Below are positions 9,058-64,000 of a stretch of DNA of 64,000 bases, piece by piece (position 1 is the first letter of the stretch; each line of letters begins with the position of its first letter). Both the position numbers and the translations under genes were made by a program. The stretch is from Henckelia pumila. Taxonomy: Eukaryota; Streptophyta; Magnoliopsida; Lamiales; Gesneriaceae. The DNA lies in contig NC_133121.1 of the NCBI RefSeq assembly GCF_033568475.1, positions 52,985,905-53,049,904 of the forward strand. Direction: 5' to 3'. The notes under the pieces were generated by a model. It saw only the letters and a list, made by a program, of their open reading frames with translations. It made no database searches and was not told where the DNA came from.

Positions 9058-9623
9058 GTACCTCTTGGTTAAGAGTCAGATTCTTTGAAGAACACAATGT
9101 GTTGTCGATTCCCAAACCATCTACGGAAAATGTATCCAGACTGATTGAAGAAAATCTCAGTGGGACAACTGATCAGATGACTGAGCTAGAAATTGTGCTC
9201 CCAAATAAAGTGGAACTCTTATCTGGTCCAGTTCCTACAAAAGGTTCAACACATGTTGAAACTTCCTCCAATCTAAGGCCGGAACTACAGAGAGGTCTTG
9301 AAACAATTCCAGAGGTATCTCTCACCAAAATTGATGAACTTATGCAATCAGTCACAAAGGAAATTGAGACAGGGACAACATAACAAGTTGAAGTGGAAGA
9401 ACATAGGTAGCATTTGAGAGAGCTTTTCAGAAGAACTTAGGTAAATTTTGAAAATTTTGTTAAGAAAATCTGAGAAGTGCTTCTTAAAAGCACGCCAAAA
9501 AACTATCGTAGTAAGCCACATATTGAGATAGTGAAATTTGCAGAAGATCGGTCAGTTCAAGATCCTATCTCTCCATACATTGGAATCTCCTATGAGAACA
9601 TGTAAAACATGAAAATAGGAAAC
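9058..9623 (+). pseudogene. Unassigned coding-like remnant
   Basis: One frame is open from the LTR edge to a stop at 9381-9383 (about 108 codons). It reads like a polar, Glu/Thr/Ser-rich protein segment (IPKPSTENVSRLIEENLSG...), but has no ATG in frame near its start. A further protein-like stretch with stops follows to about 9600. I recognise no domain. It may be an exon fragment of a host gene or an old element. It is flanked by retrotransposon edges on both sides. Confidence 0.3.
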
Positions 9624-20836: not shown

Positions 20837-20848
20837 GCTCTGATACCA
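20837..20848 (-). other. Primer binding site (tRNA-iMet type) of the Tekay-type element
   Basis: On the minus strand this reads TGGTATCAGAGC and lies 2 bases from the LTR start at 20851. Confidence 0.9.
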
Positions 20849-20850
20849 AT

Positions 20851-21897
20851 TGAGATAACTCTAACTACTATTAAATAAAAAATAAATAAAGAAAAACACG
20901 GGATTTAAAAAAAAATTGGCATGACCTATTTGTTTGAATAACAAACCACCTGTCACAAACAGCAGTTTAATATAAACCTCAACCCGAGGAAAATATCGCG
21001 CATAAGGCATACATAAACAGTAACTAGTTCGACCCGAGACGAATAGGAAAATAAATAGTGTTTACATGCCAACATAATTGCAAGGAATAACACATCCTGC
21101 TACTAGAAGGAAGACAATTTACTACAGTAGTTACTTATTACAATAACATAGTGCGGAAATGAAAAGAGCGGCAACGGTCGAGGGCATGCCTCCGAACACC
21201 TACGGACCCTGGAAATCCTGCCCCGCAGCCTCGTCTGCATACTCATCTGTACTAAGCATAGTAGTGAGCCTAAAATCCCAGCAAGGTTTAAACAATACGG
21301 CAAGTGTTCAAAATAATGCATCGTACTAAAAATAGTACTAAGTATATGATGAAAGTTCGCGCGAAGAGGGGAAAAGTCATAACATGCTCGAAGTAAGAAC
21401 AATAGCAATATGCGATGAAAATAAAAACACATGCATGATTCATTTATCATTTACTTTTACTTTTGAATTTAGATCCTCAATTATAACTATGATTTTGATC
21501 GATCAATGGCAATAGTATACAATGTCGGCAAGGATGCCGAGATTTCTCACGTTAAAAACCACATTGCCCCTTTGAATTTGGTAGGGATTCCGAGATTTCT
21601 CCCGTTAAACACCGTACTACACGTTTGAATTTGGTAGGGATGTCGGGATGTCTCCCGTTAAACACCGTACTACATGTCTCATTTGGCAAGTGAGTCAGGG
21701 CATCCCCCGACCCATCATTGCATGTCTAAGTTACAACCAATTCACCTCATACTTTAACTTTTAATTCATTTAACTTTTTCTCATTTCATCTTATACTTAA
21801 TCATGCATTCCTTAATTAAAACTTCAGGGCTAGAATATTAAATAAATTTGAAGTCACACACGCAAATAAATGGGTGTTAAATAATTTAAACGACATT
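20851..21897 (-). mobile_element. Truncated 5' LTR of the Tekay-type element
   Basis: It aligns with 9624-10663 and then stops abruptly after AAACGACAT. A new TG-starting sequence begins at 21898. The remaining 2 kb of the LTR is not found to the right inside this window, so it was lost or displaced. Confidence 0.8.
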
Positions 21898-37335: not shown

Positions 37336-39250
37336 ATGGACGTATCGGTGGCTAACGTCACACTTCGACAACCGGAAGTCAATAAGTCAGATTTATGTGA
37401 AGATTCAATTTCTTTGATCATCCAGAAGTTTGAAGATTATTTGAAAAGAATAAACAAATAGAAATTTGAACAACAATTTAAGCACCCTAGTTTTCCTGCT
37501 CCTGAAAATCTATTGAGGGTGTCACCTACTCGAGAACCATCTCGACCAAGGTATGTTGTTAATTATGAATCTAATACCAAGAATTTTGATTTTGTATAAT
37601 GCAGAGAATGCAATGGATATGGACACCATGCAATTGAATGTGCAAATCGACTCCACAAAGGTATGACTATTTCCTTGAGTGATGATGACTCTGACAGAGA
37701 TCAAGAACAAAATGATGAAGAAGATCATACCTCCCTGGCTGCATTGTTGAAAGAAAATAGGTATTTTCAAGTCAACCCACTGGGTGTTGCCTCCGGTGTT
37801 GCAACACCAGGCCAAAACACCAGTGAAAAACCAGTTTTCTTGAATAAATCTACTCTTGGTAATTTTGGTGATCAGGAAGCTGTCAGTGATGATATAACTC
37901 TAGAGTGTATATAGGAACTTTATGAAGAGTTGTATGCTGATTGGATCAAACGGAACAAGTTGAACACAAATCTCTCTAAAGAAAATTGTGATTTGAAGTC
38001 TGTCATGGCCAAGCTTGAAGTGATTCTAGGCAAGAAAGATTCAGAATTGTGCAAGGTTAAGGGGGAGCTTGAAAAAGAAACTCTAACACTTGTTGAATTT
38101 AATTTATGTACATCCAAGATTGATTCTATACTTATAATGGGTAAATATGGTAAGGCTGGTCTGGAGTTAGAAAACAGAGTGTTTGAAGTTGGAGAATCAT
38201 CAAAACCCACTGTCGCCCCGCCATTCAAGAATACTCCATCAAAAGAGTGTGTTCCTCCTCAAAATCCAAAGTAATGGAATCGTTATTTTATGTGTCATTG
38301 CTGTTTCAAACCAGATCACATCAGGTCTTTTTGTTTTAAGCTTAGGCATGACTACATGTATTGGGAGTCAAAGCTGATGTTTCCCCCCATGTTGCACAAC
38401 ACCAGGCGCAACACCTCCAACAACAGACCCACAGTGAAGAAAATTTGGGTTCCAAAGTTTAAATTTCAGTGCTTTGTTGTTTATACTTTGTTGAAAACTA
38501 ACACTGCAGGTCACTAGTACTTCAATAGTGGAAGCTCACGCCACATTACAGGTTCGAAAGAACATCTCATGGACTATATTGAACAAATAAGTGACAAAGT
38601 GACTTATAGAGGTGGTGCAAAAATAAGGTTTGTTGGCAAAAGAACACTGAATATGGAAGGACTCCTAAAGCTTCACAATGTGCTACATGTCAAGGGACTA
38701 AACTCAAACTTGATTTCCATTAGTCAATTGCATGATAATGATTTTCATGTCAAGTTTGATAAAAATACTTGTGAAGTTTTTGATAATGCTAACATATGTT
38801 TTATGATAGGTACAAGATTAGAAGGCAATTGTTATCAACTTGGAGAGGAACTTGCCTACAAACATGAAAATTTTGATGATCTTGATTTTTGGCACCAAAA
38901 GTTGGGCCATGCAAATTTCAAGACAATGAAAAATCAGTGCAAGTATGAAGCTGTTCGAGGTATGCCTATTTTGAATTCTGGAGTTCCATATGTTTATGGT
39001 GCATGCCGAAAAGGTACGGAAACTTGCGTGTTGCACCCCGTGTTACAACACTTTGGGACAACACGATGCCTTGAACTTTTGCATATCGATTTAATGGGTC
39101 CTATGAAACTGGAAAGCTATGGAGGTAAGAAGTACTCTTTTGTGTGCGTTGATGACTTCTCGTAAGATTCATTAGAGAGAAGTCGGATATTTTTTATGTT
39201 TTTAAGAATTTACTCACAAAGATTAATAACCTGCATAACTTGAAGGTTGA
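37336..39250 (+). pseudogene. Ty1/copia gag-protease-integrase fragment
   Basis: An ATG at 37336 starts a gag-like frame (MDVSVANVTLRQPEVNK) with stops. Two CCHC knuckles are visible: CRECNGYGHHAIEC (37600-37641) and CHCCFKPDHIRSFC (about 38293-38334). Protease reads YFNSGSSRHITG, preceded by a TAG (38517-38519). Asn replaces the catalytic Asp. The pre-integrase motif FWHQKLGHANF and integrase start LLHIDLMGPMKLESYGGKKYSFVCVDDFS follow, then a stop at 39163-39165. After a small gap RFIREKSDIFYVFKNLLTKINN continues to about 39248, where unrelated gypsy sequence begins. Reverse transcriptase is not in the window. Confidence 0.8.
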
Positions 39251-40063
39251 AGAATCGACGAGGTCGATTTGTTGAGATCAATCAGTGATTATTAGGGCAT
39301 AGCAAATCGAGAATACTTGGATAGTATTTTGTTGCATAGTGCTTAAGGGAAAACTAATATTGATTCCAGCAATTGCTTAGTGATAGAAATTGTATACACG
39401 GGTTGAGTAACGGAAAGGATCAAGTTTCTGCTTCATGTAGGAGTTGTCTAACAATGATATCAAGGGTGTCAACCGAACATTTTGATGAAGTGTTTCTGTG
39501 ATGACATCTAAGTACACCATGGTGTTTGGGATCCGACAAGTGTTTGGAAACGCTAATGGACATTAGTAAGGAGACATTAGTTGTCTGATTGTGATATGTG
39601 ACATTAGCTAGGATCTAGTTCTTGAGATCTAGAAGGTTGTGTCACTAATCTTTCAGCGAGTGATGCGCGATGTCTCTAGAATGACCGAGATAGTCGATGA
39701 TCGACATAGTAGCCCACGAAGTTTACCTTTGGGATTGGAGACTTCGAAAAATTGTGACGAATCGAATTCGTTCTTTCCAGTCAGTGAGTCACAACTGTGA
39801 GGACTGTTTGTCAAGGATATTGCGTTTCGACAATTGACAATGGTCGGATGCATGATTAGGTAGCTAGTGATGATGGAGTCATCAGAGACTCCGAGGTGAG
39901 TTATATCGATTGCAGTGACTGTCGAGTTTCGAGACGGTATAGGAAGCATTTTCACATACCGGTGTACTGTGGAATATCCAAGTCGAGCATTTTGGATGGG
40001 AGCTTGCCTTAGTCTTGATGTGTGTACAGTGAATGCAAGCATGTATAACTATCAGGAGGATGT
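39251..40063 (+). repeat. 813-bp direct repeat, copy A
   Basis: It matches 44499-45311 with the same length and scattered substitutions. Both end TATCAGGAGGATGT. Copy A then continues CTATCGAATAAAAC, while copy B is interrupted there by the LOG-carrying array. Confidence 0.9.
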
Positions 40064-44498: not shown

Positions 44499-45311
44499 AG
44501 AATCGACGAGGTCAATTTGTTGAGATCAATCAGTGATTATTAGGGCATTAACGAATCAAGAATACTTGGATAGTATTTTGTTGCATAGTGCTTAAGGGAA
44601 AACTAATATTGATTCCACCAATTGCTTAGTGATAGCAATTGTATACTCGGGTTGAGTAACGGAAGGGATCAAGTTTCTGCTTCATGTAGGAGTTGTCTAA
44701 CAACGATATCAAGGGTGTCAACGAACATTTTGATGAAGTGTTTCTGTGATGACATCTAAGTATACCGTGGTGTTTGGGATTCGACAAGTGTTTGAAAACG
44801 CTAATGGACATTAGTAAGGAGACATTAGATGTCTGATCGTGATATCTGAAATTAGCTAGGATCTAGTTCTCGAGATCTAGCAGGTTGTGTCACTAATATT
44901 TTAGCGAGTGATGCGCGATGTCTCTGGAATGACCGAGATAGTCGATGATAGATTTAGTAGCCCACGAAGTTTACCTTTGGGATTGAAGAATTCGCAAAAT
45001 TGTGACGAATCGAATTCGTTCTTTCCAGTCAGTGAGTCACAACAGTGAGGACTGTTTGTCAATGATATTGCGTTTCGACAATTGAAAATGGTCGGATGCG
45101 TGATTAGGTAGCTAGTGATGATTGAGTCATTAGAGACTCCGAGGTGAGTTATATCGATTGTAGTGACTATCGAGTTTCGAGATTGTATAGGAAGCGTTTC
45201 CACATGCCGGTGTGCTGTGGAATATCCAAGTCGAGCATTTTGGATGGGAGCTTGCATTAGTCTTGATGTGTGCACAGTGAATGCAAGTATGTATAACTAT
45301 CAGGAGGATGT
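44499..45311 (+). repeat. 813-bp direct repeat, copy B, cut by the LOG-carrying array
   Basis: It is equal in length to copy A and is interrupted after GGATGT by the LTR start TGATGAAAC at 45312. The last bases, GATGT (45307-45311), are the likely left target duplication of the array. Confidence 0.85.
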
Positions 45312-45885
45312 TGATGAAACTTAAAATTTGTAATTATTTATATGTTAAAAGGTGTTTTTAAAATTAAAGTTTCATTAAAATTATGAAGTTGTATTATTTT
45401 AGTGTTATGTGTTTATATTTAAATATCTTACTAAAAATGTTGTATTTTATGTTTTGCGCAGGTTTGGTAAAAATAAAATTACTCAAGCTACAAAGGTCAT
45501 ATTGAAGTAATCTCAAATCTTGTAGAATCACAAAAGAGGCATCTTCAACTTTGTAGAAGACAAGAAATTCCAAAAACCTCATTAAGATGATCAAAATAAT
45601 CAAACATCAAAATGGAGACAGATTTACTTTTACTATGACCAGCTTGTAGTAAAAATATCATAACTATTTCACTTTTTACCCAAAATAGGTGAATTATATG
45701 TCCAAACACATCTAAACAAAATATCCTACATGTTCTATGTTTAATGAAAAGGCTGAATCGGTGGTCTAAGGCATCAAACATGCCAATTACAGTTGGGTCA
45801 TGGTATTGACATTCAAGGAGACAAGCACCCACCAACTTTACTATTTCACATTTAATGAGCCTTGGACTCTTGCTTTCATTTGGCC

Positions 45886-45894
45886 TATAAATAG
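45886..45894 (+). promoter_or_regulatory. TATA box of LTR 1
   Basis: TATAAATAG in an LTR, 57 bases before an AATAAA signal. Equivalent positions are 54465 in LTR 2 (changed to TATAAATTG) and 63116 in LTR 3 (unchanged). Confidence 0.65.
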
Positions 45895-46393
45895 ATGTGT
45901 TGTATAAGCTTTGTAGTGTGCAAAAGTGTAGAGAAATTCCTCACTTGTAAAATAAATATTGTGTGTGTAATAATAAGAGTTTGAGTGTGCATATTTCTCC
46001 AAGTTTAAGTATGAAATTTCTTTTATCCTTACTCTTGAGTATTATGTTCATGGCAAGCTAAATCATTTTATGTCAAGGTGAAAAGGTTTCATTGTTGGTC
46101 AAGTAAGATTATTTATATTTTGTATATTCTTTCTTTTTCTATTTTTTTATTTTGTTTTACTAATTGATCTTTATTTGTAGGTATAATTTGGATGATTTAT
46201 TGTTATCTATTTACATCAAATACTTGGTACTTTGAATGTGATTACCTTGATTTGTTGTCTAATATGATACAATAAATACTACAATAATTATATATTATAA
46301 ATATATGTATCAATTTATAATAAAGTCATATATATTATTTAGACAATAGCGTGGCTCTGCAGGTTGTTCTAAATAATATATTGTGATTTGATC

Positions 46394-46522
46394 TAAATTT
46401 ACTTTCTCGCAACTAACATTTATTTTCTCGCAACTAACATTTAATTTCCGCAATGAACATTTACTTTCCGCAACTAACATTTACATTTCCGCAACTAACA
46501 TTTACTTTATCGCATCTAACAT
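46394..46522 (+). repeat. Minisatellite of about 20-22 bp in LTR 1
   Basis: Six variants of ATTTACTTTCCGCAACTAAC follow one another. On both sides lie two copies of a longer unit with TAGCGTGGCTCTGC (46322-46398 and 46525-46600). The same arrangement recurs at about 54970-55100 in LTR 2 and 63620-63750 in LTR 3. Confidence 0.88.
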
Positions 46523-47118
46523 AAAAAGTCATATATTTTATTTAGACGATAGCGTGGCTCTGCCGGTTGTTGAAATGAAATATGGTGATTTGATCTAACA
46601 TTTACTTTTATGTAAATTTATATTTATGCACTTATATATATATTATGAGTACCATATATTAATTATCGGTTAATCTGATCTTAATATAGTGGGAACTATA
46701 TTATATGATATATTTGTTTAAATATTTAATGGATCTTTTATGTTTATATTTATGCATTTATATATATATTATGGGTACCATATATTAAATATCGGTTAAT
46801 ATGAATTTAATATAGTGAGAACTATATTATATGATATATTTGTTTAAATATTTCATTGTTCTTTTATGTTTATTCTTATTTTAGTTTCTTTTATTTATTT
46901 TTGTTAAGCAATCTTAAATAAACCAACAATGAACCTTTGAAGCCTTGACAATTTTATAATTTATGTATTTGAAGTTTTATAATAATATTTCCATCTATAA
47001 TATATCATTGCTAAAATTAAACTTACAGCATCCTCTCCGTGGATCGATCTCGTACTCACGAGTATATTGCAGACAACCTACACTTGGGTGAATTAAAATT
47101 TAAGTTGTAGCAAGTTTT

Positions 47119-47136
47119 TGGCGCCGTTGCCGAGGA
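47119..47136 (+). other. Primer binding site (tRNA-Asp type), unit 1
   Basis: TGGCGCCGTTGCCGAGGA follows the LTR end by 6 bases. It nearly complements the 3' end of plant tRNA-Asp and is characteristic of Athila-type elements. A GAG|GTATAA splice-donor-like site lies just after it (GT at 47138-47139). Confidence 0.85.
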
Positions 47137-47257
47137 GGTATAAATTAAGTTTAATTTTTGTTATTTATGTAAATAGTTTGTTGTTTTTAATTGTATGATT
47201 GTTTGGAGTCGTAAATAAAGTGGTAGACTTGTTCGAGTATCAGAAAATATTTTAAAC

Positions 47258-49314
47258 ATGGAGGATAATTCTAATAATCAAGATGATAATAATAATAATA
47301 ATAATAATAATCAAGAACATGAACAACCAAGAACACTTAGGCACCATATGAATCCAATAAGAACTAGTACACCATCTTGTTTAGTTTTTCCTCCTGATGC
47401 GTCTAATTTCAATTTTAAACCTCAAATCATTCAACTTTTACCAAATTTTCATGGCCTAGATTCTGAAAATCCATATTTGCATTTAAGAGAATTTGAGGAG
47501 GTTTGCAACACTTATAATGATCAAAATTGTAGCATGGATATTGTTCGATTAAAGATTTTCCCTTTTTATTTAAAAGATAAAGCTAAAACATGGTTGCAAA
47601 ATTTGAGATCAAGTTCAATAAGATCATGAGAAGAAATGCAACAACAATTTCTAAAAAAGTTTTTTCCTTCCCATAGAACAAACTCTTTTAAAAGACAAAT
47701 TACAACTTTTTCTCAAAAACAAGGGGAAACATTTTATCAATGTTGGGATAGATATAAAGAGTTACTTAATACATGCACACATCATGGTTTTGAAATATGG
47801 AGGATAGTTTCTCACTTTTATGAAGGTTTAATACCTAAAGATAGGCAAATGATAGAATTCATGTGTAATGAAACTTTTGAAGATAAAAACACAAATGAAG
47901 CTATGGAATATTTGGAGTCATTAGCAGAAAATTCTCAAAATTGGGATAATATAGGCTCAATTGAACCACCAAGTAAAACCAATAATTCAACAAATGGGGT
48001 TGGTATTTACCATCTTAAAGATGATGTAGATATTCAAGCCAAACTTGCATCTTTAGTAAAAAAAATTGAGTAATTAGAAATGAAAAAGAGTGATCAATTA
48101 AAAAGTGTTCAAGAAATTGTTTATCATATATGTGATACACATGATCATCTTACAAAAAATTGTCCTACTTTGCCATCATTTAAAGAATGTCTCCATGAAC
48201 AAGCCAATTATGTTAACAATTTTAAAAAACCAACATTAGATCATTTTTCACAAACATATAATCATGGTTGGAGAAATCATCCTAATTTTAGTTGGAGGAA
48301 CGATAATAATGCACAACTTTCACAGCAACATTTTCAAAATAATCAAAATCATCAAGGTTATGCTCCTTATATCCCACCTCCAAGAAACATTTTGAAGATG
48401 AAATTCATGAATACATTCAAAAGCAAGAGTCTATCAATATTCAAAACATTCAATCTATGAATGATTTGAAAGAAACTCTTGCAAAATTTGCATCTGCACT
48501 TAATATTCATGAAAAAGAAAAATTTTCATCTCAACCACAACCTAATCCTAAAAATCAAGAAAAATTTGATCAAGTAAAAGCTGTTATTACTCTTAGATGT
48601 GGTAAAATAGTTATTGATCCATATAGTGATGAAAACAAAGATCAATTAAACTCAAAGAGTAAGGATTCAAATCCTGATACTTTTGAGAAAGATGATGCTT
48701 TGGTTCCTAATAATAAGAAAGTTGATGATAAATTATCTGAAGTAATATGTGAGTCAAATAAACCTGTTCCTTTTCCTCATGCATTAGTTAATAATAAAAA
48801 AAAAAATAATTATGATATTTATGAAGTTTTTAAACAAGTAAAAATCAATATTCCATTATTATATGCTATTAAACAAGTTTCTTCTTATGCAAAGTTTTTA
48901 AAAGATTTATGTACTGTGAAAAAACAATTGCATGTAAAGAAGAAAGCATTTTTAACTGAGCAGGTAAGTTCTATTATTCAAAATAATTCTACTTTGAAAT
49001 ATAAAGATCCTGGTTGTCCAACAATTTCATGTATTATTGGAAAAAATAAAATTAAAAAAGCTTTGTTAGATTTGGGAGCAAGTGCGAATTTACTTCCTTA
49101 TTCAGTTTATGAAAAACTTAACTTGGGAGATTTAAAACCTACATCTGTCACTCTTTTACTAGCCGATAGGTTAATCAAAATACCTAGAGGTATCGTAGAA
49201 GATGTTTTAGTTCAAGTCGATAAGTTCATATATCCTGTGCATAATGAAATTCCAGTAATATTGGGACGTCCATTTCTCGCAACTTCAAATGCTTTAATTA
49301 ATTGTCGAAATTGA
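47258..49314 (+). pseudogene. Gag and protease of unit 1, broken
   Basis: The frame starts MEDNSNNQDD with an Asn run from an AAT microsatellite. It includes a retrotrans_gag region (LKDKAKTWLQNL, FLKKFFPSHRTNSFKRQI, CWDRYKELLNTC) and a linker that is Asn/Gln/His-rich. Protease has LLDLGASANLLPYSVYEKL and PVILGRPFLAT. Breaks are a TGA at 47627-47629 (unit 2 has TGG here), a TAA at 48071-48073, a frameshift near 48390 shared with unit 2, and a 36-base deletion in protease after KFIYPV (near 49238) absent from unit 2. Gag would form the particle that packages RNA. This copy cannot make it whole. Confidence 0.85.
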
Positions 49315-49655: not shown

Positions 49656-50884
49656 ATGCCTTGGTTTGCTAATATTGTAAATTTTCTTGTGACAAATAAA
49701 ATGTCTTCTCATTGGAGTTCACAAGATAAAAATAAATTCTTGAAAGAGGTAAAAAAAATTAATTGGGATGATCCTTATTTGTTTAAGTATTGTCCTGATC
49801 AAAATTTTCGACGATGCATACCCGACAATGAGGTAAGTAATGTCATTCTGAGGCATGTGGAGGTCATTTTTCATCAAACAAAACAACTGCAAAAATCTTT
49901 CAATGTGGATTTTATTGGCCTTCTTTATTCAAAGATACAAATTCATTTTGCAAATCTTGTGAAAATTGTCAGAAAATGGGTTTAATTTCAAAACGAAACA
50001 TGATACCTTTAAATTTAATCATGATTATTGAAATATTTGACAGTTGGGGAATAGATTTTATGAGTTCATTCCCATTATCTTTTGGATTTACTTATATTTT
50101 AGTGGTTGTCGATTATGTTTCAAAATGGATTGAAGCAATTGCATGTAGAACTAATGATCATAAAGTTGTGATAAAATTTTTGAAAGAAAATATTTTTAGT
50201 CGATTTGGAATACCTAGAGCTATAATAAGTGATGGGGAAAGTCATTTTATAAATAAATCATTTTCTTCGTTGTTAAGAAAATATGGTATTACACATAAAG
50301 TTTCTACTCCATATCACCCTCAAACGAATGGTCAGGTTGAACTTGCAAATAAAGAAATAAAACAAAATTTGGAAAAAACGGTCAACCCAAATCGAAAAGA
50401 TTGGTCTTTAAGATTAAGTGATGCATTATGGGCATATAGAACTGCATTTAAAACATCATTGGGGATGTCACCATATAGATTAGTTTTTGGTAAGCATTGT
50501 CATCTACCTGTTGAAATTGAACATAAAGCTTATTGGGCTATTAAAGCATTTAATACTAATTTAGATGATGCATCTAAATTAAGAAAATTGCAATTGAATG
50601 AACTAAAAGAATTAAGAAATGATGCATATGAAAATGCAAAGATTTATAAAGATAAAACAAAAGCCTTTCATGATAAAAATATTATGAGAAAATCTTTTGA
50701 AATTGGACAAAAAGTTTTACTTTATAATTCTCGCTTGCATTTGTTTCCAGGAAAACTTAGATCGCGATGGTCCGGACCATTTATTGTTAAATTTTTCTAT
50801 CCTCATGGTGCTGTTGATGCTGAAAATCCTAAAAATAATAATGTATTTAAAGTTAATGGTCAAAGACTTAAACCATTTTTATAA
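49656..50884 (+). pseudogene. Integrase of unit 1, nearly complete core
   Basis: The N-terminal zinc-binding part (49656-49985) is frameshifted. The core frame at 49976-50884 reads [10 protein letters not shown] (first Asp), IISDGESHF (second Asp) and [16 protein letters not shown] (catalytic Glu), so the DDE triad is present. The C-terminal domain continues to GQRLKPFL, where TAA replaces the AAA codon of unit 2. No chromodomain is present, as expected for Athila. Whether the core is active without its zinc domain is doubtful. Confidence 0.85.
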
Positions 50885-50950
50885 AATGAAATTCTTAATG
50901 ATGAGTTTATGTCTTTATCTGATCCAAATTAACTATTACTTATATTTTCA

Positions 50951-50967
50951 TTTTGTTTTTTTTGCAG
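50951..50967 (+). promoter_or_regulatory. Splice-acceptor-like site before the accessory ORFs
   Basis: A T-rich tract ending TTTTGCAG lies about 120 bases upstream of the zinc-finger ORF and is kept in unit 2 (AG at 59614-59615). Together with the donor-like site after the PBS it could give a spliced subgenomic RNA, as reported for envelope-class plant retroelements. This is inference. Confidence 0.35.
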
Positions 50968-51084
50968 AATTGAGTTCACTACTCGGTTAAGTGGCGGATA
51001 ACGGTACTTCGTGACTACTTTTATTTGGTTTTTTTTTTCAATTTCCCACAATAATTGAATATATATATATATATATATATTAAT

Positions 51085-51656
51085 ATGGATGTTTGTATTT
51101 TTAATCTTCGTAAATATTTTCGTGGTATAGTTGATAATAAGTTGAAAAATATTTATAAAGCTAGATGCGAAAGATTACGTTTACTTATGTCGTATAATAT
51201 TCTTGATGATATTCGCTTTATTATTGAAGCAAATATTCGACTTGATGGGGAAGCAAGTAAGATCATTATCAAAAAAATGCCTGGATTTGGAAAAAGTATT
51301 TATGCTAAAAAACGTTGAGCTAAAAATATAGGTGTATGTTACAAATGTGCTAGGTGGACTTGTCACGGACATGTAGGAATGTTGGAATGACATCCGCAAA
51401 TAGAGAAGATAAAAAATTATTCATTAGGAATGTGCTGAGTAAAGAACCATTGGATCCACTTCCAATGTCTCTTGAGACGCATTCCAGTGGATACGTGCAA
51501 AATGAACTTCTTAAACTGTGGACAAAATTTTTTTATGAGAGGGATCATTATATAGATTGTCTTGCATTTAATGTGGATCCCGTATGTCATCTATCAGAAG
51601 AATTGGGTATTTCAACTCCAACGAGAAGAGATAGATGGTACTACCCCCGATGGTAA
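51085..51656 (+). pseudogene. Broken ORF resembling plant-virus cysteine-rich nucleic-acid-binding protein, unit 1
   Basis: The frame begins MDVCIFNLRKYF. An N-terminal part of about 70 residues leads to a glycine/lysine turn (GFGKS) and a basic stretch, then CYKCARWTCHGH. The basic cluster directly before a CX2C finger is the signature of the small cysteine-rich proteins of carlaviruses and relatives (Viral_NABP family), which bind nucleic acid and can act against RNA silencing. A further stretch of about 90 residues (LSKEPLDPLPMSLETHSSGY ... RRDRWYYPRW) is unknown to me. A TGA at 51316-51318 and a one-base deletion near 51372, which removes the last Cys of the finger, break it. Similarity is by motif only. 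Confidence 0.5.
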
Positions 51657-51798: not shown

Positions 51799-52437
51799 AT
51801 GGCAGGTTCTTCTTCACAAAAATTAAAAAATATTTGTGTCTTTTGTGGTTCTAATAATGGAAAGAATGAAATATTTGTTGATGCAGCAATTAATCTTGGA
51901 AAAAAGTTTTCAGAGAGAAAAATTCACTTGGTATATGGAGGAGGCAATATTGGGTTAATGAGATCTATTTCAACAGCAGCTCATCTTGGAGGTAGTCAGG
52001 TTTTGGGTATTATTCCTACAGCTTTAGCTGAAGGAAATATTACAGGTGTTACGGTTGGGGAAGAGTTGAAAGTTTCATCAATGTACGAGAGAATAACTAA
52101 AATGATAGATAATTCTGATGCTTTTATTGCCTTACCAGGTGGTTTTGGTACTTTAGAAGAAATTTTTCATGTTGTTTCTTGGGCACAACTTAATATTCAT
52201 AATAAACTCATTGGCTTGTTGAATATCAATAACTATTATGATGGTTTGTTGACTTTTCTTGATGTAGCTGTGGAACAAAATTTCATTTTAGAAAATTCAC
52301 GAAGGATGCTCATCTCTGCTTCGAATGACGACCAATTAATTGATGATCTCCAAGCTTTTGTTCATCAACCTAATTCAGCTATAACAAATATCAATTGGTC
52401 TCAACCAACCAGTAAGAAAAGGAAACTGGATCATTGA
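51799..52437 (+). CDS. LOG-like: LOG-type cytokinin riboside 5'-monophosphate phosphoribohydrolase, captured by the retroelement, unit 1
   Basis: LOG enzymes release active cytokinin base and ribose 5-phosphate from cytokinin nucleotides in one step, in cytosol and nucleus. This 212-residue ORF has the family architecture: NICVFCGS at the start, GGGNIGLM (47-54), R98 in the region before ALPGG, the signature PGGFGTLEE (113-121), then SWAQLNIH and GLLNINNYYDGLL. Length matches plant LOGs. The end, KKRKL (206-210), is basic and NLS-like. Plant LOG genes have several introns; this one has none, so it was probably captured from an mRNA. I chose the ATG at 51799, not the in-frame one at 51739, because MAGSSSQKLK is kept in unit 2 and family proteins start shortly before the CVFCGS strand. 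One oddity: R55 follows GLM, where the family usually has Gly, in both copies. Activity is unproven. Confidence 0.9.
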   Translation: MAGSSSQKLKNICVFCGSNNGKNEIFVDAAINLGKKFSERKIHLVYGGGNIGLMRSISTAAHLGGSQVLGIIPTALAEGNITGVTVGEELKVSSMYERITKMIDNSDAFIALPGGFGTLEEIFHVVSWAQLNIHNKLIGLLNINNYYDGLLTFLDVAVEQNFILENSRRMLISASNDDQLIDDLQAFVHQPNSAITNINWSQPTSKKRKLDH

Positions 52438-53878: not shown

Positions 53879-53890
53879 GGTTTGGGGGTG
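53879..53890 (+). other. Polypurine tract, unit 1
   Basis: GGTTTGGGGGTG directly precedes the LTR start TGATGAAAC. The same tract is at 62529-62540. Confidence 0.8.
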
Positions 53891-55702
53891 TGATGAAACT
53901 TAAAATTTGTAATTATTTATATGTTAAAAAGTGTGTTTTAAAATTAAAGTTTCATTAAAATTATGAAGTTGTATTATTTTAGTGTTACGTGTTTATATTT
54001 AAATATTTTACTAAAAATGTTGTATTTTATGTTTTGCGCAGGTTTGGTAAAAATAAAATTACTCAAGCTACAAAGGTCATATTGGAGTAATCTCAAATCC
54101 TGTAGAATCACAAAAGAGGCATCTTCAACTTTGTAGAAGACAAAAAATTCCAAAAACCTCATTAAGATGATCAAAATAATCAAACATCAAAATGGAGACA
54201 GATTTACTTTTACTATGACCAGCTTGTAGTACAAATATCATAACTATGTCACCTTTTACCCAAAATAGGTGAGTTATATGTCCAAACACATCTAAACAAA
54301 ATATCCTACGTATTCTATGTTGAATGAAAAGACTGAATCGGTGGTCTATGGCATCAAACATGCCAATTAAAGTTGGGTCATGGTATTGACATTCAAGGAG
54401 ACAAGCACCCACCAACTTTACTATTTCACATTTAATGAGCCTTGGACTCTGCTCTCATTTGACCTATAAATTGATGTGTTGTATAAGCTTTGTAGTATGC
54501 AAAAGTGTAAAGAAATTCCTCACTTGTAAAATAAATATTGTGTGTGTAATAATAAGATTTTGAGTGTGCATATTTCTCCAAGTTTAAGTACGAAAGTTCT
54601 TTTATCCTTACTCTTGAGTCTTATGTTCATGGCAAGCTAAATCTTTTTATGTCTAGGTGAAAAGGATTCATTGTTGGTCAAGTAAGATTGTTTATATTTT
54701 GTATATTCTTTCTTTTTCTATTTTTTATTTTGTTTTACTAATTGATCTTTATTTGTAGGTATAATTTGGATGATTTATTGTTATCTATTTACATCAAATA
54801 CTTGGTACCTTAAATGTGGTTACCTTGATTTGTTGTCTAATATGATACAATAAATACTACAATAATTATATACTATAAATATATGTATCAATTATAATAA
54901 AGTCATATATATTATTTAGACAATAGTGTGGCTCTGCCGGTTGTTCTAAATAATATATTGTGATTTGATCTAACATTTATTTTCTCGCAACTAACATTTA
55001 CTTTCTCGCAAATAACATTTACTTTCCGCAATTAACATTTACTTTCCGCAACTAACATTTACATTTCCGCAACTAACATTTACTTTATCGCATCTAACAT
55101 AAAAAGTCATATATTTTATTTAGACGATAGCGTGGCTCTGCCGGTTGTTTAAATGAAATATGGTGATTTGATCTAACATTTACTTTTATGTAAATTTATA
55201 TTTATGCACTTATATATATATATATATATATTATGAGTACCATATATTAATTATCGGTTTATCTGATCTTAATATAGTGGAAACTATATTATATGATATA
55301 TTTGTTTAAATATTTAATTGTTCCTTTATGTTTATATTTATTCATTTATATATATATTATGGTTACCATGTATTAAATATCGGTTAATCTGAATTTAATA
55401 TAGTGAGAAATATATTATATAATATATTTGTTTAAATATTTCATTGTTCTTTTATGTTTATTCTTATTTTAGTTTTTTTTTTATTTATTTTTGTTAAGCA
55501 ATCTTAAATAAACCAACAATGAACCTTTGAAGCCTTGACAATTTTATAATTTGTGTATTTGAAGTTTTATAATAATATTTCCATCTATAATATATCATTG
55601 CTAAAATTAAACTTACAGCATCCTCTCCGTGGATCGATCTCGTACTCACGAGTATATTGCAGACAACCTACACTTGGGTGAATTACAATTTAAGTTGTAT
55701 CA
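53891..55702 (+). mobile_element. LTR 2 of the LOG-carrying array (shared)
   Basis: A polypurine tract precedes it and a PBS follows it, so it serves as 3' LTR of unit 1 and 5' LTR of unit 2. Length is 1812 bp. It starts TGATGAAACTTAAAATTTG and ends TTGTATCA. Its (TA)n run near 55210 is longer than in LTR 1. Confidence 0.9.
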
Positions 55703-55856: not shown

Positions 55857-57951
55857 ATGGAGGATAATTCTAATAATCAAGATGATAATAATAATAATAA
55901 TCAAGAACATGAACAACCAAGAACACTTAGGCACCATATGAATCCAATAAGAACTAGTACACCATCTTGTTTAGTTTTTCCTCCTGATGCGTCTAATTTC
56001 AATTTTAAACCTCAAATCATTCAAATTTTACCAAATTTTCATGGCCTAGATTCTGAAAATCCATATTTGCATTTAAGAGAATTTGAGGAGGTTTGCAACA
56101 CTTATAATGATCAAAATTGTAGCATGGATATTGTTCAATTAAAGCTTTTCCCTTTTTCTTTAAAAGATAAAGCTAAAACATGGTTGCAAAATTTGAGATC
56201 AAGTTCAATAAGATCATGGGAAGAAATGCAACAACAATTTCTAAAAAAGTTTTTCCCTTCCCATAGAACAAACTCTTTTAAAAGACAAATTACAACTTTT
56301 TCTCAAAAACAAGGGGAAACATTTTATCAATGTTGGGATAGATATAAAGAGTTACTTAATACATGCCCACATCATGGTTCTGAAATATGGAGGATAGTTT
56401 CTCACTTTTATGAAGTTTTAATACCTAAAGATAGGCAAATGATATAATTCATGTGTAATGGAACTTTTGAAGATAAAAACCCAAATGAAGCTATGGAATA
56501 TTTGGAGTCATTAGCAGAAAATGCTCAAAATTGAAATAATATAGGCTCAATTGAACCACCAAGTAAAACCAATAATTTAACAAATGGTGTTGGTATTTAC
56601 CATCTTAAAGATAATGTAGATATTCAAGCCAAACTTGCATATTTAGCAAGAAAAATTGAGTCATTAGAAATGAAAAAGAGTGATCAATTAAAAAGTGTTC
56701 AAGAAATTATTTTTCATATATGTGATACACATGATCATCTTACAAAAAATTGTCCTACTTTGCCTTCATTTAAAGAATGTCTCCATGAACAAGCCAATTA
56801 TGTTAACAATTTTAAAAAACCAATATTAGATCCTTTTTCACAAACATATAATCCTGGTTGGAGAAATCATCCTAATTTTAGTTGGAGGAACGATAATAAT
56901 GCACAACTTTCACAACAACCTTTTCAAAATAACCAAAATCATCAATGCTATGCTCCTTATATCCCACCTCCAAGAAATATTTTGAAGATGAAATTCACGA
57001 ATACATTCAAAAGCAAGAGTCTATCAATATTCAAAACATTCAATCTATGAATGATTTGAAAGAAACTCTTGCAAAATTTGCATCTGCACTTAATATTCAT
57101 GAAAAAGGAAAATTTTCATCTCAACCACAACCTAATCCTAAGAATCAAGAAAATTTTGATCAAGTAAAAGCTGTTATTACTCTTAGAAGTGGTAAAATAG
57201 TTAATGATCCATATAGTGATGAAAACAAAGATCAATTAAACTCAAAGAGTAAGGATTCAAATACTGATACTTTTGAGAAAGATGATGCTTTGGTTCCTAA
57301 TAATAAGAAAGTTGATGATAAATTATCTGAAGTAATATGTGAGTCAAATAAACATGTTCTTTTTCCTCATGCATTAGTTAATAATAAAAAATATAAAAAA
57401 TAAAAAATGATTATGATATTTATGAAGTTTATAAACAAGTAAAAATCAATATTCCATTATTAGATGCTATTAAACAAGTGCCTTCTTATGCAAAGTTTTT
57501 AAAAGATTTATGTACTGTTAAAAGACAATTGCATGTAAATAAGAAAACATTTTTAACTGAGCAGGTAAGTTCTATTATTCAAAATAATTCTACTTTGAAA
57601 TATAAAGATCCTGGTTGTCCAACAATTTCATGTATTATTGGAAAAAATAAAATTAAAAAAGCTTTGTTAGATTTGGGAGCAAGTGTGAATTTACTTTCTT
57701 ATTCAGTTTATGAAAAACTTAACTTGGGAGATTTAAAACCTACATCTGTCACTCTTTTACTAGCCGATAGGTCAATCAAAATACCTAGATGTATCATAAA
57801 AGATGTGTTAGTTCAAGTCGATAAATTCATATATCCTGTGGATTTTATTGTCTTGAATACACAACCAATAGAAGTGCATAATGAAATTCCAGTAATATTG
57901 GGACGTCCATTTCTCGCAACTTCAAATGCTTTAATTAATTGTCGAAATTGA
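55857..57951 (+). pseudogene. Gag and protease of unit 2, broken
   Basis: It is open from ATG 55857 for 196 codons, beyond the place where unit 1 stops (SIRSWEEMQQQF is intact here). It is then broken by TAA at 56445-56447, TGA at about 56533, the frameshift shared with unit 1 (near 56975) and a stop near 57401. Protease (LLDLGASVNLLSYSVYEKL ... PVILGRPFLAT) keeps the 12 residues after KFIYPV that unit 1 has lost. The Asn run is shorter (5 versus 8). Shared and private lesions together show an ancestor already frameshifted before the tandem duplication. Confidence 0.85.
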
Positions 57952-58300
57952 ATAATGAAATTATCTTTTGGAAATATGACTTTAGAACTTAATGTGTTCA
58001 ATTTAAGTAAACAACCATGTATTATTGAAGATGAAGATGATAATGCAATATAAACTATCATGGAAGAATGTCAACAACAAAACTTAAATCAATAATCCGA
58101 TGTTTGTTTAGTGGAAAATATTGATTCGGAAAATATTTTTAATCAAAATTATTTGAAGAAAACAATCAACTTGAAGAAGAAAAAGAAAATGTAGTAGCCG
58201 ATCATTTATCAAAAATAATTTCTGAATCATCTCAAAATAAAATACCAATAAATAAAAATTTTCCGGATGATCGACTATTTTATGCTACTACTATGCCTTG
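57952..58300 (+). other. Deletion junction replacing reverse transcriptase and RNase H, unit 2
   Basis: It has the same structure as in unit 1: acidic remnant, then VVADHLSKI (about 58191-58217), the residual end of RNase H, leading straight into the integrase N-terminal region. No RT is present. Confidence 0.8.
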
Positions 58301-59581
58301 GTTTGCTAATATTGTAAATTTTCTTGTGACAAATAAAATGTCTTCTCATTGGAGTTCACAAGATAAAAATAAATTCTTGAAAAAGGTAACAAAAATTTAT
58401 TGGGATAATCCTTATTTGTTTAAGTATTGTCCTGATCAAATTTTCGACGATGCATGCCCGACAATGAGGTAAGTAATGTCATTAAATTTTGTCATTCTGA
58501 GGCATGTGGAGGCCATTTTTCGTCAAAGAAAACATCTGCAAAAATCTTTTAATGTAAATTTTATTGGCCTTCTTTATTCAAAGCTACGCATTCATTTTAC
58601 AAATCTTGTGAATATTGTCAGAAAATGGGTTCAATTTCAAAACAAAACATGATTCCTTTAAATCCAATCATGATTATTGAAATATTTGACAGTTGGGGAA
58701 TAGATTTTATGGGTCCATTCCCATTATCTTTTGAATTTACTTATATTTTAGTGGCTGTCGATTATGTTTCAAAATGGATTGAAGCAATTGCATGTAGAAC
58801 TAATGATCATAAAGTTGTGATAAAATTTTTGAAAGAAAATATTTTTAGTCGATTTGGAATACCTAGAGCTATAATAAGTTATGGGGGAAGTCATTTTATA
58901 AATAAATCATTTTCTTCGTTGTTAAGAAAATATGATATTACACATAAAGTTTCTACTCCATATCACCCTCAAACGAATGGTCAGATTGAACTTGCAAATA
59001 AAGAAATAAAACAAATTTTGGAAAAAACGGTCAATCCAAATCGAAAAGATTGATCATTAAAATTAAGTGATGCATTATGGGCATATAGAACTGCATTTAA
59101 AACATCATTGGAGATGTCACCATATAGATTAGTTTTTGGTAAGCATTGTCATCTACCTGTTGAAATTGAACATAAAGCTTATTGGGCTATTAAAGCATTT
59201 AATACTAATTTAGATGATGCATCTAAATTAAGAAAATTGCAATTAAATGAACTAGAAGAATTAAGAAATGATGCATATGAAAATGCAAAGATTTATAAAG
59301 ATAAAACAAAAGTCTTTCATGATAATTATATTATGAGAAAATCTTTTGAAATTGGACAAAAAGTTTTACTTTATAATTCTCGCTTGCATTTGTTTTCAGG
59401 AAAACTTAGATCGCGATGGTCCAGACCATTTATTGTTAAATTTTTCTATCCTCATGGTGCTGTTGATGCTGAAAATCCTAAAAATAATAATGTATTTAAA
59501 GTTAATGGTCAAAGACTTAAACCATTTTTAAAAAATGAAATTCTTAATGATGAGTTTATGTCTTTATCTGATCCAAATTAA
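58301..59581 (+). pseudogene. Integrase of unit 2, broken
   Basis: The N-terminal zinc-binding part is frameshifted (58300-58625). The core reads [10 protein letters not shown], then IISYGGSHF, where Tyr replaces the second catalytic Asp. A TGA at 59051-59053 replaces the Trp codon of unit 1. The C-terminal part continues to 59581, beyond the unit 1 stop. It cannot be active. Confidence 0.85.
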
Positions 59582-59735
59582 CTATTACTTATATTTTCAT
59601 TTTGTTTTTTTGCAGAATTGAGTTCACTTCTCGGTTAAGTGGCGGATAACGGTACTTCGTGACTATTTTATTCGATTTTTTTTTCAATTTTCCACAATAA
59701 TTGAATGAATATATATATATATATATATTAATATT

Positions 59736-60305
59736 GATGTTTGTATTTTTAATATTCGTAAATATTTTTGTGGTATAGCTGATAATAAGTTGAAAAATAT
59801 TTATAAAGCAAGATGCGAGAGATTACGTTTACTTATGTCGTATAATATTCCTGATGATATTCGCTTTATTATTGAAGCAAAGGTTCGACTTGATGGGAAA
59901 GCAAGTAAGATCATTATCAAACAAATGCCTTGATTTGGAAAAAGTACTTATGCTAAAAAACGTAGAGCTAAAAATATAGGTGAATGTTACAAATGTGCTA
60001 GGTGGACTTGTCACGGACATTGTAGGATTGTTGGAATGACATACACAAACAGAGAAGATAAAATATTATTCATTAGGAATGGGCTGAGTAAAGAACCATT
60101 GGATCCACTTCCAATGTCTCTTGAAACACATTCCAGTGGATACGTGCAAAATGAACTTCTTAAACTGTGGACAAAATTTCTTTATGAGAGGGATCATTAT
60201 ATAGATTGTTTTGCATTTAATGTGGATTCCGTATGTCGTCTATCAGAAGAATTGGGTATTTCAACTCCAACGAGAAGAGATAGATGGTACTACCCCCGAT
60301 GGTAA
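59736..60305 (+). pseudogene. Broken ORF resembling plant-virus cysteine-rich nucleic-acid-binding protein, unit 2
   Basis: It corresponds to 51085-51656. The start codon is changed (ATG to ATT) and a TGA at 59931-59933 interrupts it before the finger. The basic stretch and finger are intact here (KKRRAKNIGECYKC, then CHGHC), followed by the same unknown C-terminal part, ending RRDRWYYPRW. The lesions differ from those of unit 1, so the ancestor had an open frame through the finger. Confidence 0.5.
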
Positions 60306-60452: not shown

Positions 60453-61091
60453 ATGGCAGGATCTTCTTCACAAAAATTGAAAAATATTTGTGTCTTTTGT
60501 GGTTCTAATACTGGAAAGAATGTAATATTTGTTGATGCAGCAATTAATCTTGAAAAAAAGTTAGCAGAGAGAAAAATTCACTTTGTATATCTAGGAGGCA
60601 ATATTGGGTTAATGAGATCTATTTCAACAGCAGCTCATCTTAGAGGTAGTCAGGTTTTGAGTATTATTCCTACAGCTTTAGCTGAAGGAAATATTACAGG
60701 TGTTACGGTTGGGGAAGAGTTGAAATTTTCATCAATGTACGAGAGAATAACTAAAATGATAGATAATTCTGATGCTTTTATTGCCTTACCAGGTGGTTTT
60801 GGTGCTTTAGAAGAAATTTTTCATGTTGTTTCTTGGGCACAACTTAATATTCATAATAAACCCATTGGCTTGTTGAATATCAATAACTATTATGATGGTT
60901 TGTTGAATTTTCTTGATGTAGCTGTGGAACAAAATTTCATTTCAGAAAATTCACGAAGGATGCTCATCTCTGCTTCGAATGACGACCAATTAATTGATGA
61001 TCTCCAAGCTTTTGTTCATCAACCTGATTCGGCTATAACAAATATCAGTTGGTCTCAACCAACCAATAAGAAAAGGAAACTGGATCATTGA
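60453..61091 (+). CDS. LOG-like: LOG-type cytokinin riboside 5'-monophosphate phosphoribohydrolase, captured, unit 2 (probably impaired)
   Basis: This second copy has the same 212-codon length and is open from ATG to TGA. It differs from the unit 1 protein at about 17 residues. Several changes hit conserved positions: G47L in the GGGxxG loop, G64R, G70S and T118A in the signature, which becomes PGGFGALEE. R98 and E121 remain. These changes make full activity unlikely. Only about three of the DNA differences are silent, which fits drift without conserving selection since duplication. The leader with TATAAAT (60379-60385) and the downstream AATAAA are as in unit 1. Confidence 0.88.
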   Translation: MAGSSSQKLKNICVFCGSNTGKNVIFVDAAINLEKKLAERKIHFVYLGGNIGLMRSISTAAHLRGSQVLSIIPTALAEGNITGVTVGEELKFSSMYERITKMIDNSDAFIALPGGFGALEEIFHVVSWAQLNIHNKPIGLLNINNYYDGLLNFLDVAVEQNFISENSRRMLISASNDDQLIDDLQAFVHQPDSAITNISWSQPTNKKRKLDH

Positions 61092-62540: not shown

Positions 62541-64000
62541 TGATGAAACTTAAAATTTGTATTTATTTATATGTTAAAAAGTGTGTTTTAAAATTAAAGT
62601 TTCATTAAAATTATGAAGTTGTATTATTTTAGTGTTACGTGTTTATATTTAAATATTTTACTAAAAATGTTGTATTTTATGTTTTGCGCAGGTTTGGTAA
62701 AAATAAAATTACTCAAGCTACAAAGGTCATATTGGAGTAATATCAAATCCTGTAGAATCACAAAAGAGGCATCTTCAACTTTGTAGAAGACAAGAAATTC
62801 CAAAAACCTCATTAAGATGATCAAAATAATCAAACATTAAAATGGAGACAGATTTATTTTTACTATGACTAGCTTGTAGTTCAAATATCATAACCATTTC
62901 ATATTTTACCCAAAATAGGTGAGTTATATGTCCAAACACATCTACACAAAATATCATACGTGTTCTATGTTGAATGGAAAGGCTGAATCGGTGGTCTAAG
63001 GCATCAAACATGCCAATTAAAGTTGGGTCATGTTATTGAAATTCAAGGAGACAAGAACCCACCAACTTTACTATTTCATATTTAATGAGCCTTGGACTCT
63101 TGCTCTCATTTGGCCTATAAATAGATGAGTTGTATAAGCTTTGTAGTGTGCAAAAGTGTAGAAAAATTTCTCACTTGTAAAATAAATATTGTGTGTGTAA
63201 TAATAAGAGTTTGAGTGTGCATATTTCTTCAAGTTTAAGTATGAAATTTCTTTTATCCTTACTCTTGAGTGTTATGTTCATGGCAAGCTAAATCCTTTTA
63301 TGTCAAGGTGAAAAGGTTTCATTGTTGGTCAAGTAAGATTGTTTATATTTTGTATATTCTTTCTTTTTCTATTTTTTATTTTGTTTTACTAATTGATCTT
63401 TATTTGTAGGTATAATTTGGATGATTTATTGTTATCTATTTACATCAAATACTTGGTACCTTGAACGTGGATACCTTGATTTGTTGTCTAATATGATACA
63501 ATAAATACTACAATAATTATATACTATAAATATATGTATCAATTTATAATAAAGTCATATATATTATTTAGACAATAGCGTGGCTCTGCCGGTTGTTCTA
63601 AATAATATATTGTGATTTGATCTAACATTTACTTTCTCGCAACTAACATTTACTTTCTCGCAACTAACATTTAATTTCCGCAATTAACATTTACTTTTCG
63701 CAACTAACATTTACATTTCCGCAACTAACATTTACTTTATCGCATCTAACATAAAAAGCCATATATTTTATTTAGAAGATAGCGTGGCTCTGCTGGTTGT
63801 TTAAATGAAATATGGTGATTTGATCAAACATTTACTTTTATATAAATTTATATTTATGCACTTATATATATATTATGGGTACCATATATTAATTATCGGT
63901 TAATCTGATCTTAATATAGTGGGAACTATATTATATGATATATTTGTTTAAATATTTAATTATTCTTTTATGTTTATATTTATTCATTTATATATATATT
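62541..64000 (+). mobile_element. LTR 3 of the LOG-carrying array, cut by the window end
   Basis: It starts TGATGAAACTTAAAATTTG and matches LTR 1 and LTR 2 through the minisatellite (63620-63750). TATAAATAG is at 63116-63124. About 350 more bases are expected beyond the window. Whether another unit follows cannot be seen. Confidence 0.9.

What the first reader, a model, noticed from the sequence alone, without database searches (positions are those of the whole stretch)
51799..52437. Cytokinin-activating LOG gene carried inside an LTR retrotransposon
An intronless 212-codon ORF with the LOG signature PGGFGTLEE lies between integrase and the 3' LTR of an Athila-like element, on the element's coding strand. 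A second copy sits at the same place in the next unit. I know of no described plant retrotransposon that carries a hormone-activating enzyme as an accessory gene. If expressed from the LTR, it could raise local cytokinin and promote division of the cells in which the element lives.
Basis: partly seen in the sequence, partly recalled or inferred. Interest (0 to 1): 0.93.

Follow-up and report, generated by a model that had tools for sequence, protein, structure and literature searches.

The report
Retrotransposon-borne LOG-like gene with viral-type partner
A plant jumping element carries a copy of a hormone-enzyme gene next to a virus-type zinc-finger gene; relatives of the pair occur in several flowering-plant groups, but the enzyme's binding pocket has been rebuilt, so it may no longer do the hormone gene's original job.

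Summary
The ORF is real: window 51799-52437 (+) encodes a 212-aa LOG-family protein in an LTR element; a second copy lies at 60453-61091. It is no chance insertion: the order integrase, carlavirus-type zinc-finger protein (NABP), LOG recurs in annotated Citrus and Primulina proteins, and NABP-LOG in Orobanche and Acer. In my tree 43 element-type LOGs form one side of a branch (96/93) against 10 others, suggesting one old capture. LOG-type (YgdH) domains in gypsy elements of Citrus and poplar are already in print (PMC9289625), so the novelty claim fails. The cytokinin claim is doubtful. Of 124 element relatives outside Citrus, 115 lost the pocket Lys and all 115 also lost the pocket Glu, while catalytic Arg and Glu are mostly kept (110 and 112 of 115); 8 of 8 Citrus rows lack the catalytic Glu. 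Many relatives end in a basic patch plus LxLxL (98 of 117), resembling a nuclear signal plus an EAR repression motif. The window's copies are a degenerate sub-branch: no reverse transcriptase, no LxLxL, no detectable purifying selection between them, a broken motif in copy 2. Best reading: a LOG-derived, possibly nuclear accessory protein of changed specificity.

The parts
45312..47112 (+). LTR 1 (5' LTR of unit 1), TGATGA...TAGCA
47119..47138 (+). primer binding site TGGCGCCGTTGCCGAGGAGG (tRNA-Asp type, recalled)
47258..48460 (+). gag region of unit 1, broken into three ORFs (PF03732 in 47636-48073)
48457..49314 (+). end of gag and protease-like region (no Pfam hit; part of it matches the N-terminal part of Primulina P0155)
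49656..50884 (+). integrase (PF00665 in 49976-50884); no RT found between protease-like region and integrase
50949..50967 (+). 3' splice-acceptor-like tract (T-rich, ends TTTGCAG) between integrase and NABP, also in unit 2; judged by eye only
51087..51656 (+). NABP gene of unit 1 (carlavirus-type zinc-finger protein by comparison with unit 2), frameshifted and stop-bearing
51799..52437 (+). LOG-like gene, copy 1, 212 aa, ends KKRKLDH
53879..53890 (+). polypurine tract GGTTTGGGGGTG
53891..55702 (+). LTR 2, shared by both units
55857..59581 (+). gag, protease-like and integrase region of unit 2, interrupted by stops
59709..60305 (+). NABP gene of unit 2, one in-frame stop between pieces 59709-59930 and 59934-60302; second piece PF01623 26.9 bits (cut-off 20.9)
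60453..61091 (+). LOG-like gene, copy 2, 212 aa, motif PGGFGALEE
62541..64000 (+). LTR 3 (cut by the window end)

Best explanation
The ORF is an accessory gene of a Ty3/gypsy (probably Athila-like) retrotransposon lineage, in the env position downstream of integrase and of a second accessory gene, a carlavirus-type nucleic-acid-binding zinc-finger protein (NABP). It descends from a plant LOG gene captured probably once, long ago, presumably as an intronless cDNA, and is now found in element or NABP context in several eudicot groups. Shown by sequence: LOG fold, catalytic Arg and Glu kept in most members, a remodelled base/prenyl pocket (Lys to Ile/Met/Leu together with Glu to His/Gln in nearly all of the changed members), and in most listed relatives a C-terminal basic patch plus LxLxL. 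Inferred: the protein is nuclear and binds or hydrolyses a nucleotide other than the usual cytokinin ribotides, and in tail-bearing members it recruits the TOPLESS co-repressor through the EAR-like tail, working with NABP (a likely silencing suppressor or transcription regulator) to make the host cell permissive for the element. The window's two copies belong to a sub-branch that lost LxLxL, lie in RT-less units and are decaying; copy 2 is probably inactive.
Against: No activity, localisation or TOPLESS binding was tested. The catalytic pair is conserved, which fits an active enzyme; the changed residues may only shift, not end, activity on cytokinin ribotides. The 120 listed LOG relatives are the top of 7717 above threshold (7998 scored), so the sample is chosen by likeness to the window. 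Only 10 canonical or outgroup LOGs were in the tree and several are broken gene models. Element context is read from automatic annotations in a few genera; for the many Reevesia, Diplodiscus, Populus and metagenome copies it is inferred from their place in the tree. None of the 119 NABP hits is named as a virus protein: the tie to carlaviruses rests on the Pfam profiles, and in P0125, P0140, P0141 and P0162 the PF01623 score is just below its cut-off (17.1-20.5 of 20.9). The window copies lack LxLxL, so the EAR part does not apply to them.
Confidence: 0.55

Rival explanations
1. The element LOG is a genuine cytokinin-activating enzyme expressed from the LTR, raising cytokinin in the cells where the element is active.
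For: LOG fold; catalytic Arg and Glu kept in 110 and 112 of the 115 pocket-changed relatives and in both window copies; the Acer/Xanthoceras-type rows, grouped by having Lys-99, also keep Glu-124, His-96, Met-95 and Trp-128 in 9 of 9.
Against: Both window copies lost the pocket Lys and Glu, as did 115 of 124 relatives outside Citrus; Citrus rows lost the catalytic Glu in 8 of 8. NCBIfam's cytokinin phosphoribohydrolase equivalog is not reached (110.3 of 300 bits), but that model serves prokaryotes and no canonical plant LOG was run as a control.
Confidence: 0.25
2. The LOG ORF has no function for the element: a host gene fragment captured once and dragged along (transduplication).
For: dN/dS between the window copies is not below 1 (1.67, bootstrap lower bound 0.62); the Citrus rows lost the catalytic motif.
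Against: Full-length ORFs ending in LxLxL persist in 20 of 25 representatives under 80% identical, and R98, E121 and G117 are kept in 110, 112 and 115 of 115 sequences, which drift would not be expected to preserve.
Confidence: 0.12
3. A chance processed-pseudogene insertion confined to this array.
For: Only two copies in the window, in one tandem array; the window's own genome could not be searched.
Against: The same integrase-NABP-LOG order occurs in other genera; the nearest annotated LOG relative is element-borne in Primulina (P0126).
Confidence: 0.02

Closest known systems
Ty3/gypsy elements with a YgdH (LOG-type) domain in Citrus and Populus (PMC9289625, citing Steinbauerova et al. 2011)
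   Same: LOG-type domain inside gypsy LTR retrotransposons; the Citrus proteins fetched here fall on the same side of the tree as the window's LOG.
   Different: The section and passages read do not mention the NABP partner, the pocket changes, the LxLxL tail, or LOG in Lamiales elements.
Plant LOG enzymes (AtLOG3 2a33, AtLOG8 1ydh)
   Different: Pocket Lys and Glu replaced; most listed element relatives add a C-terminal basic + LxLxL tail; carried on a retrotransposon.
Carlavirus-type NABP / cysteine-rich proteins
   Same: The element's second accessory gene matches PF01623 above its cut-off in unit 2, with a basic AKKRRA stretch and Cys-rich finger.
   Different: About 180 aa in many of the relatives, encoded by a retrotransposon and not an RNA virus; direction of transfer unknown.
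Phalaenopsis gypsy elements with an AlkB m6A demethylase (PMC9289625)
   Same: A captured host-type enzyme kept as an extra ORF by a gypsy lineage.
   Different: Different enzyme; activity was shown there in vitro, none is shown here.

Membership tests
LOG (cytokinin riboside 5'-monophosphate phosphoribohydrolase) | LOG/TIGR00730 fold and family profile | tested here: met
LOG (cytokinin riboside 5'-monophosphate phosphoribohydrolase) | PGGxGTxxE motif with catalytic Arg and Glu | tested here: met
   Copy 1: R98, PGGFGTLEE, E121. Copy 2 keeps R98 and E121 but T118 is Ala, so the motif is not met there
LOG (cytokinin riboside 5'-monophosphate phosphoribohydrolase) | Base/prenyl pocket residues equal to CgLOG/AtLOG3 (Met96, His97, Lys100, Glu125, Trp129) | tested here: not met
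   Met and Trp kept; His to Tyr, Lys to Ile, Glu to His in both copies (roles from PMC4979012)
LOG (cytokinin riboside 5'-monophosphate phosphoribohydrolase) | Release of free cytokinin from iPRMP/tZRMP | not testable with these tools
   needs an enzyme assay
Ty3/gypsy LTR retrotransposon | LTRs, PBS, polypurine tract, gag and integrase | tested here: met
Ty3/gypsy LTR retrotransposon | RT and RNase H (autonomy) | tested here: not met
   RT/RNase H parts of the Citrus and Primulina proteins find no match in either unit at E 1e-5, only another element at about 14.3-15.3 kb: non-autonomous derivative
Ty3/gypsy LTR retrotransposon | Target-site duplication | tested here: inconclusive
   Left edge at 45311/45312; right end lies outside the window
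Athila lineage | Position in an RT/RH/INT tree | not tested
   no RT in the units; no reference integrase set held; PBS type recalled only
Carlavirus-type NABP (PF01623) | Family profile above curated cut-off | tested here: met
   unit 2 piece 59934-60302: 26.9 bits, cut-off 20.9; PF05515 20.2 bits is below its cut-off of 23; the first unit 2 piece and two unit 1 pieces gave no hit
EAR-motif protein | LxLxL motif | tested here: not met
   absent from the tail of the window's copies (KKRKLDH); at the C-terminus of 98 of 117 single-domain proteins

The most novel reading that the evidence does not exclude
A lineage of gypsy retrotransposons spread over eudicots carries a two-gene effector module where retroviruses keep env: a carlavirus-type zinc-finger NABP, and a LOG-derived nuclear protein whose nucleotide pocket has been re-tooled and which gained an EAR (LxLxL) tail to recruit TOPLESS, so that the element manipulates host transcription or silencing as pathogen effectors do. 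In Citrus the enzyme part is dead and only the fold and tail remain.
Probability: 0.35. Interest if true: 0.92.

Novelty: new variant of a known kind. Interest (0 to 1): 0.72.

Why it matters
Extra ORFs in plant LTR retrotransposons are common but few have a known role. Here one is tied to a named host enzyme family, with a paired pocket change, a conserved candidate co-repressor tail and a virus-type partner gene, each of which makes a direct bench prediction. It would also give a case where a retroelement and plant RNA viruses share an accessory gene, and a warning that 'LOG-like' genes in eudicot annotations can be transposon genes rather than cytokinin enzymes.

Tried and rejected
Chance processed-pseudogene insertion: rejected, since the gene order recurs in other genera.

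'No described retrotransposon carries LOG': rejected by PMC9289625.

Purifying selection between the two window copies: not detected (LOG dN/dS 1.67; integrase 1.15; protease region 1.04; gag piece 1.57; NABP piece 0.94; few changes, wide errors).

Viral-contig scans: P0001 gave no relative; alignment A1 gave 4 distant loci at 32-43% identity, not followed.

The window's own genome: eight requests to the genome search did not complete, so copy number and further copies are unknown. The host species was not determined.

Literature for NABP in retrotransposons: 'carlavirus' + 'nucleic acid binding protein' + 'retrotransposon' gave 0 papers; PF01623/PF05515/Carla_C4/Viral_NABP gave 2 papers, unrelated by title. 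Held library only. Other searches for LOG in retrotransposons.

In one search the 21 'tailed' representatives were picked by a pattern that fixes Leu at -5, so only the 20-of-25 and 98-of-117 counts are used.

Full report
WHAT IS THERE. Window 51799-52437 (+) is an open 212-codon ORF of the LOG family (PF03641 123 bits; TIGR00730 167.7 bits, cut-off 96.35). A second 212-aa copy lies at 60453-61091, 96.7% identical in DNA. They lie in two units that share LTRs: LTR1 45312-47112, LTR2 53891-55702, LTR3 from 62541 to the window end. LTR1 and LTR2 are each followed by a TGGCGCCGTTGCCG primer site, and GGTTTGGGGGTG precedes LTR2 and LTR3. LTR1-LTR2 divergence is 3.2%, LTR1-LTR3 and LTR2-LTR3 3.7% over the part in the window, and the internals 3.5% (LTR limits there a few bases wider), so the parts are of similar age. 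Gag (PF03732) and integrase (PF00665) are recognised. Reverse transcriptase was not found: RT- or RNase H-bearing Citrus and Primulina proteins match integrase and LOG in both units, but their RT/RNase H parts match only another element at about 14.3-15.3 kb. The units therefore look non-autonomous.

A SECOND ACCESSORY GENE. Between integrase and LOG each unit holds a degenerate ORF; unit 2 reads AKKRRAKNIGECYKCARWTC. The piece 59934-60302 matches PF01623 (carlavirus nucleic-acid-binding protein) with 26.9 bits against a cut-off of 20.9, and PF05515 with 20.2 bits, below its cut-off of 23; the other unit 2 piece and two unit 1 pieces (51055-51315, 51354-51653) gave no hit. A search with the Orobanche relative gave 119 proteins; 118 carry PF01623 in the precomputed column, and five (P0241, P0251, P0265, P0286, P0287, from Orobanche gracilis, O. 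hederae and Acer yangbiense) also carry a LOG-family domain. None is named as a virus protein, so the tie to carlaviruses rests on the profiles. A T-rich TTTGCAG acceptor-like tract precedes NABP in both units; a spliced env-like mRNA is an inference.

LOG IS CARRIED BY THE ELEMENT ELSEWHERE. A search restricted to long proteins gave 49 hits. Among them LOG is annotated in one protein with integrase, RT, RNase H or gag domains in Primulina eburnea, P. tabacum, Citrus sinensis and Citrus x changshan-huyou, and with NABP in Orobanche gracilis, Citrus x changshan-huyou and Primulina eburnea. Ten of the 49 were rescanned; in P0140, P0155 and P0162 the order is integrase, NABP, LOG, though PF01623 is above its cut-off only in P0155 of these three (21.1; the others 20.1 and 20.0 of 20.9). 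Others of the 49 are ordinary LOGs, bacterial or fungal proteins, or fusions with unrelated host domains, probably gene-model errors. P0003 (Xanthoceras) and P0129 (Acer) have gag/pol-like stretches beside LOG, judged by eye. The window's nearest LOG relatives are P0002 (84%) and Primulina P0126 (85% over 164 residues).

HISTORY. In a tree of 53 rows (80%-identity representatives of 144) the 43 element-type LOGs are one side of a branch against 10 canonical or outgroup LOGs, support 98/100, or 96/93 with the trait columns and tail left out. Acer and Xanthoceras branch first; Citrus, Primulina, Orobanche and the rest form a group at 99/96. One capture is the simplest reading, though canonical sampling is thin, three outgroup rows have long branches, and 'element-type' is shown by gene neighbours only for the rows named above.

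WHAT CHANGED IN THE PROTEIN. In CgLOG, Arg99 and Glu122 are catalytic, Met96, Lys100 and Glu121 hold the base, and Met96, His97, Lys100, Glu125 and Trp129 are proposed to hold the prenyl group; alanine replacement of the AMP-contact and catalytic residues, S19A excepted, nearly abolished activity (PMC4979012, passages; I did not see its figure, so not which mutants are in it). One search took 144 rows: 10 canonical or outgroup, 8 Citrus, 2 window and 124 others, which were divided by the residue at position 99 into 9 with Lys and 115 without (Ile 40, Met 39, Leu 36). Glu at the Glu125 position is absent from all 115 (His 54, Gln 57, others 4) and present in all 9 and all 10; the catalytic pair is kept in 110 and 112 of the 115. 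On the 53-row tree each change needs one step, and the two go together: 37 of 37 rows without Lys lack Glu, 16 of 16 with Lys have it. In the 8 Citrus rows the catalytic Glu is Ala in all 8 and the second motif Gly is Asp in all 8; yet of 16 Citrus proteins printed, 9 still end in KKYKL(D/N)L.LRL.

THE TAIL. 98 of 117 single-domain proteins (the window's copy 1 among the 117), and 20 of 25 representatives under 80% identity, end in LxLxL, mostly after a basic patch. LxLxL is one of the two EAR consensus patterns (PMC9956375, abstract in search listing). That it recruits TOPLESS here, and that KKRK is a nuclear signal, are inferences. Full-length canonical tails were not compared. The window's copies end KKRKLDH without LxLxL; as Citrus has the tail, the window's branch probably lost it.

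HOW IT MIGHT WORK. I favour a nuclear, nucleotide-binding accessory protein of changed specificity, paired with NABP. Carlavirus CRP/NABPs suppress RNA silencing, and CVB p12 acts as a transcription factor and causes hyperplasia (PMC12172455 passages; PVM CRP in PMC10219291 passages). An element under small-RNA silencing would gain from both. This is inference from family knowledge; nothing here measures activity.

PRIOR KNOWLEDGE. YgdH in gypsy elements of two Citrus species and poplar is in print (PMC9289625, section 12 read), citing Steinbauerova et al. 2011 (not held). PMC7264820, PMC6317226 and PMC11963269, searched for YgdH and cytokinin, hold neither word in the main text. I found no paper on NABP in retrotransposons in the held library. 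New here, within those limits: the NABP-LOG pair, the paired pocket change, the tail, and LOG in elements of Primulina and beside NABP in Orobanche and Acer.

Noticed in passing
59709-60305 and 51087-51656: Carlavirus-type NABP gene inside a retrotransposon, with relatives in Orobanche, Xanthoceras, Acer and Striga annotations and many metagenome contigs; direction of gene transfer between virus and element unknown.
   Followed up: partly
44499-45311 and 39251-40063: A 0.81 kb repeat (94%) whose second copy ends exactly where LTR1 begins: the array appears to have inserted into a copy of this repeat; a copia-type gag_pre-integrs ORF lies just upstream of the first copy (38569-39165).
   Followed up: partly
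9621-10663 and 20848-21896: 1.05 kb direct repeats (93%) flanking a minus-strand gypsy pol (protease 15400-16083, RT/RNase H 14125-15396): probably the LTRs of another element.
   Followed up: partly
23960-26279: Plus-strand LINE-type ORFs (RVT_1 in 23960-24904, zf-RVT in 25052-25897).
   Followed up: no
P0130, P0131, P0136, P0140 (Citrus): Citrus element LOGs share a dead catalytic motif (PGD...LEA) while 9 of 16 Citrus proteins printed keep the KKYKLDLTLRL-type tail: a candidate pseudoenzyme kept by a transposon.
   Followed up: partly
one search hits named LOGL10 (Populus) or LOG3-like (Primulina): Public annotations name element-type LOGs as ordinary cytokinin enzymes, which may mislead LOG family counts.
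   Followed up: no
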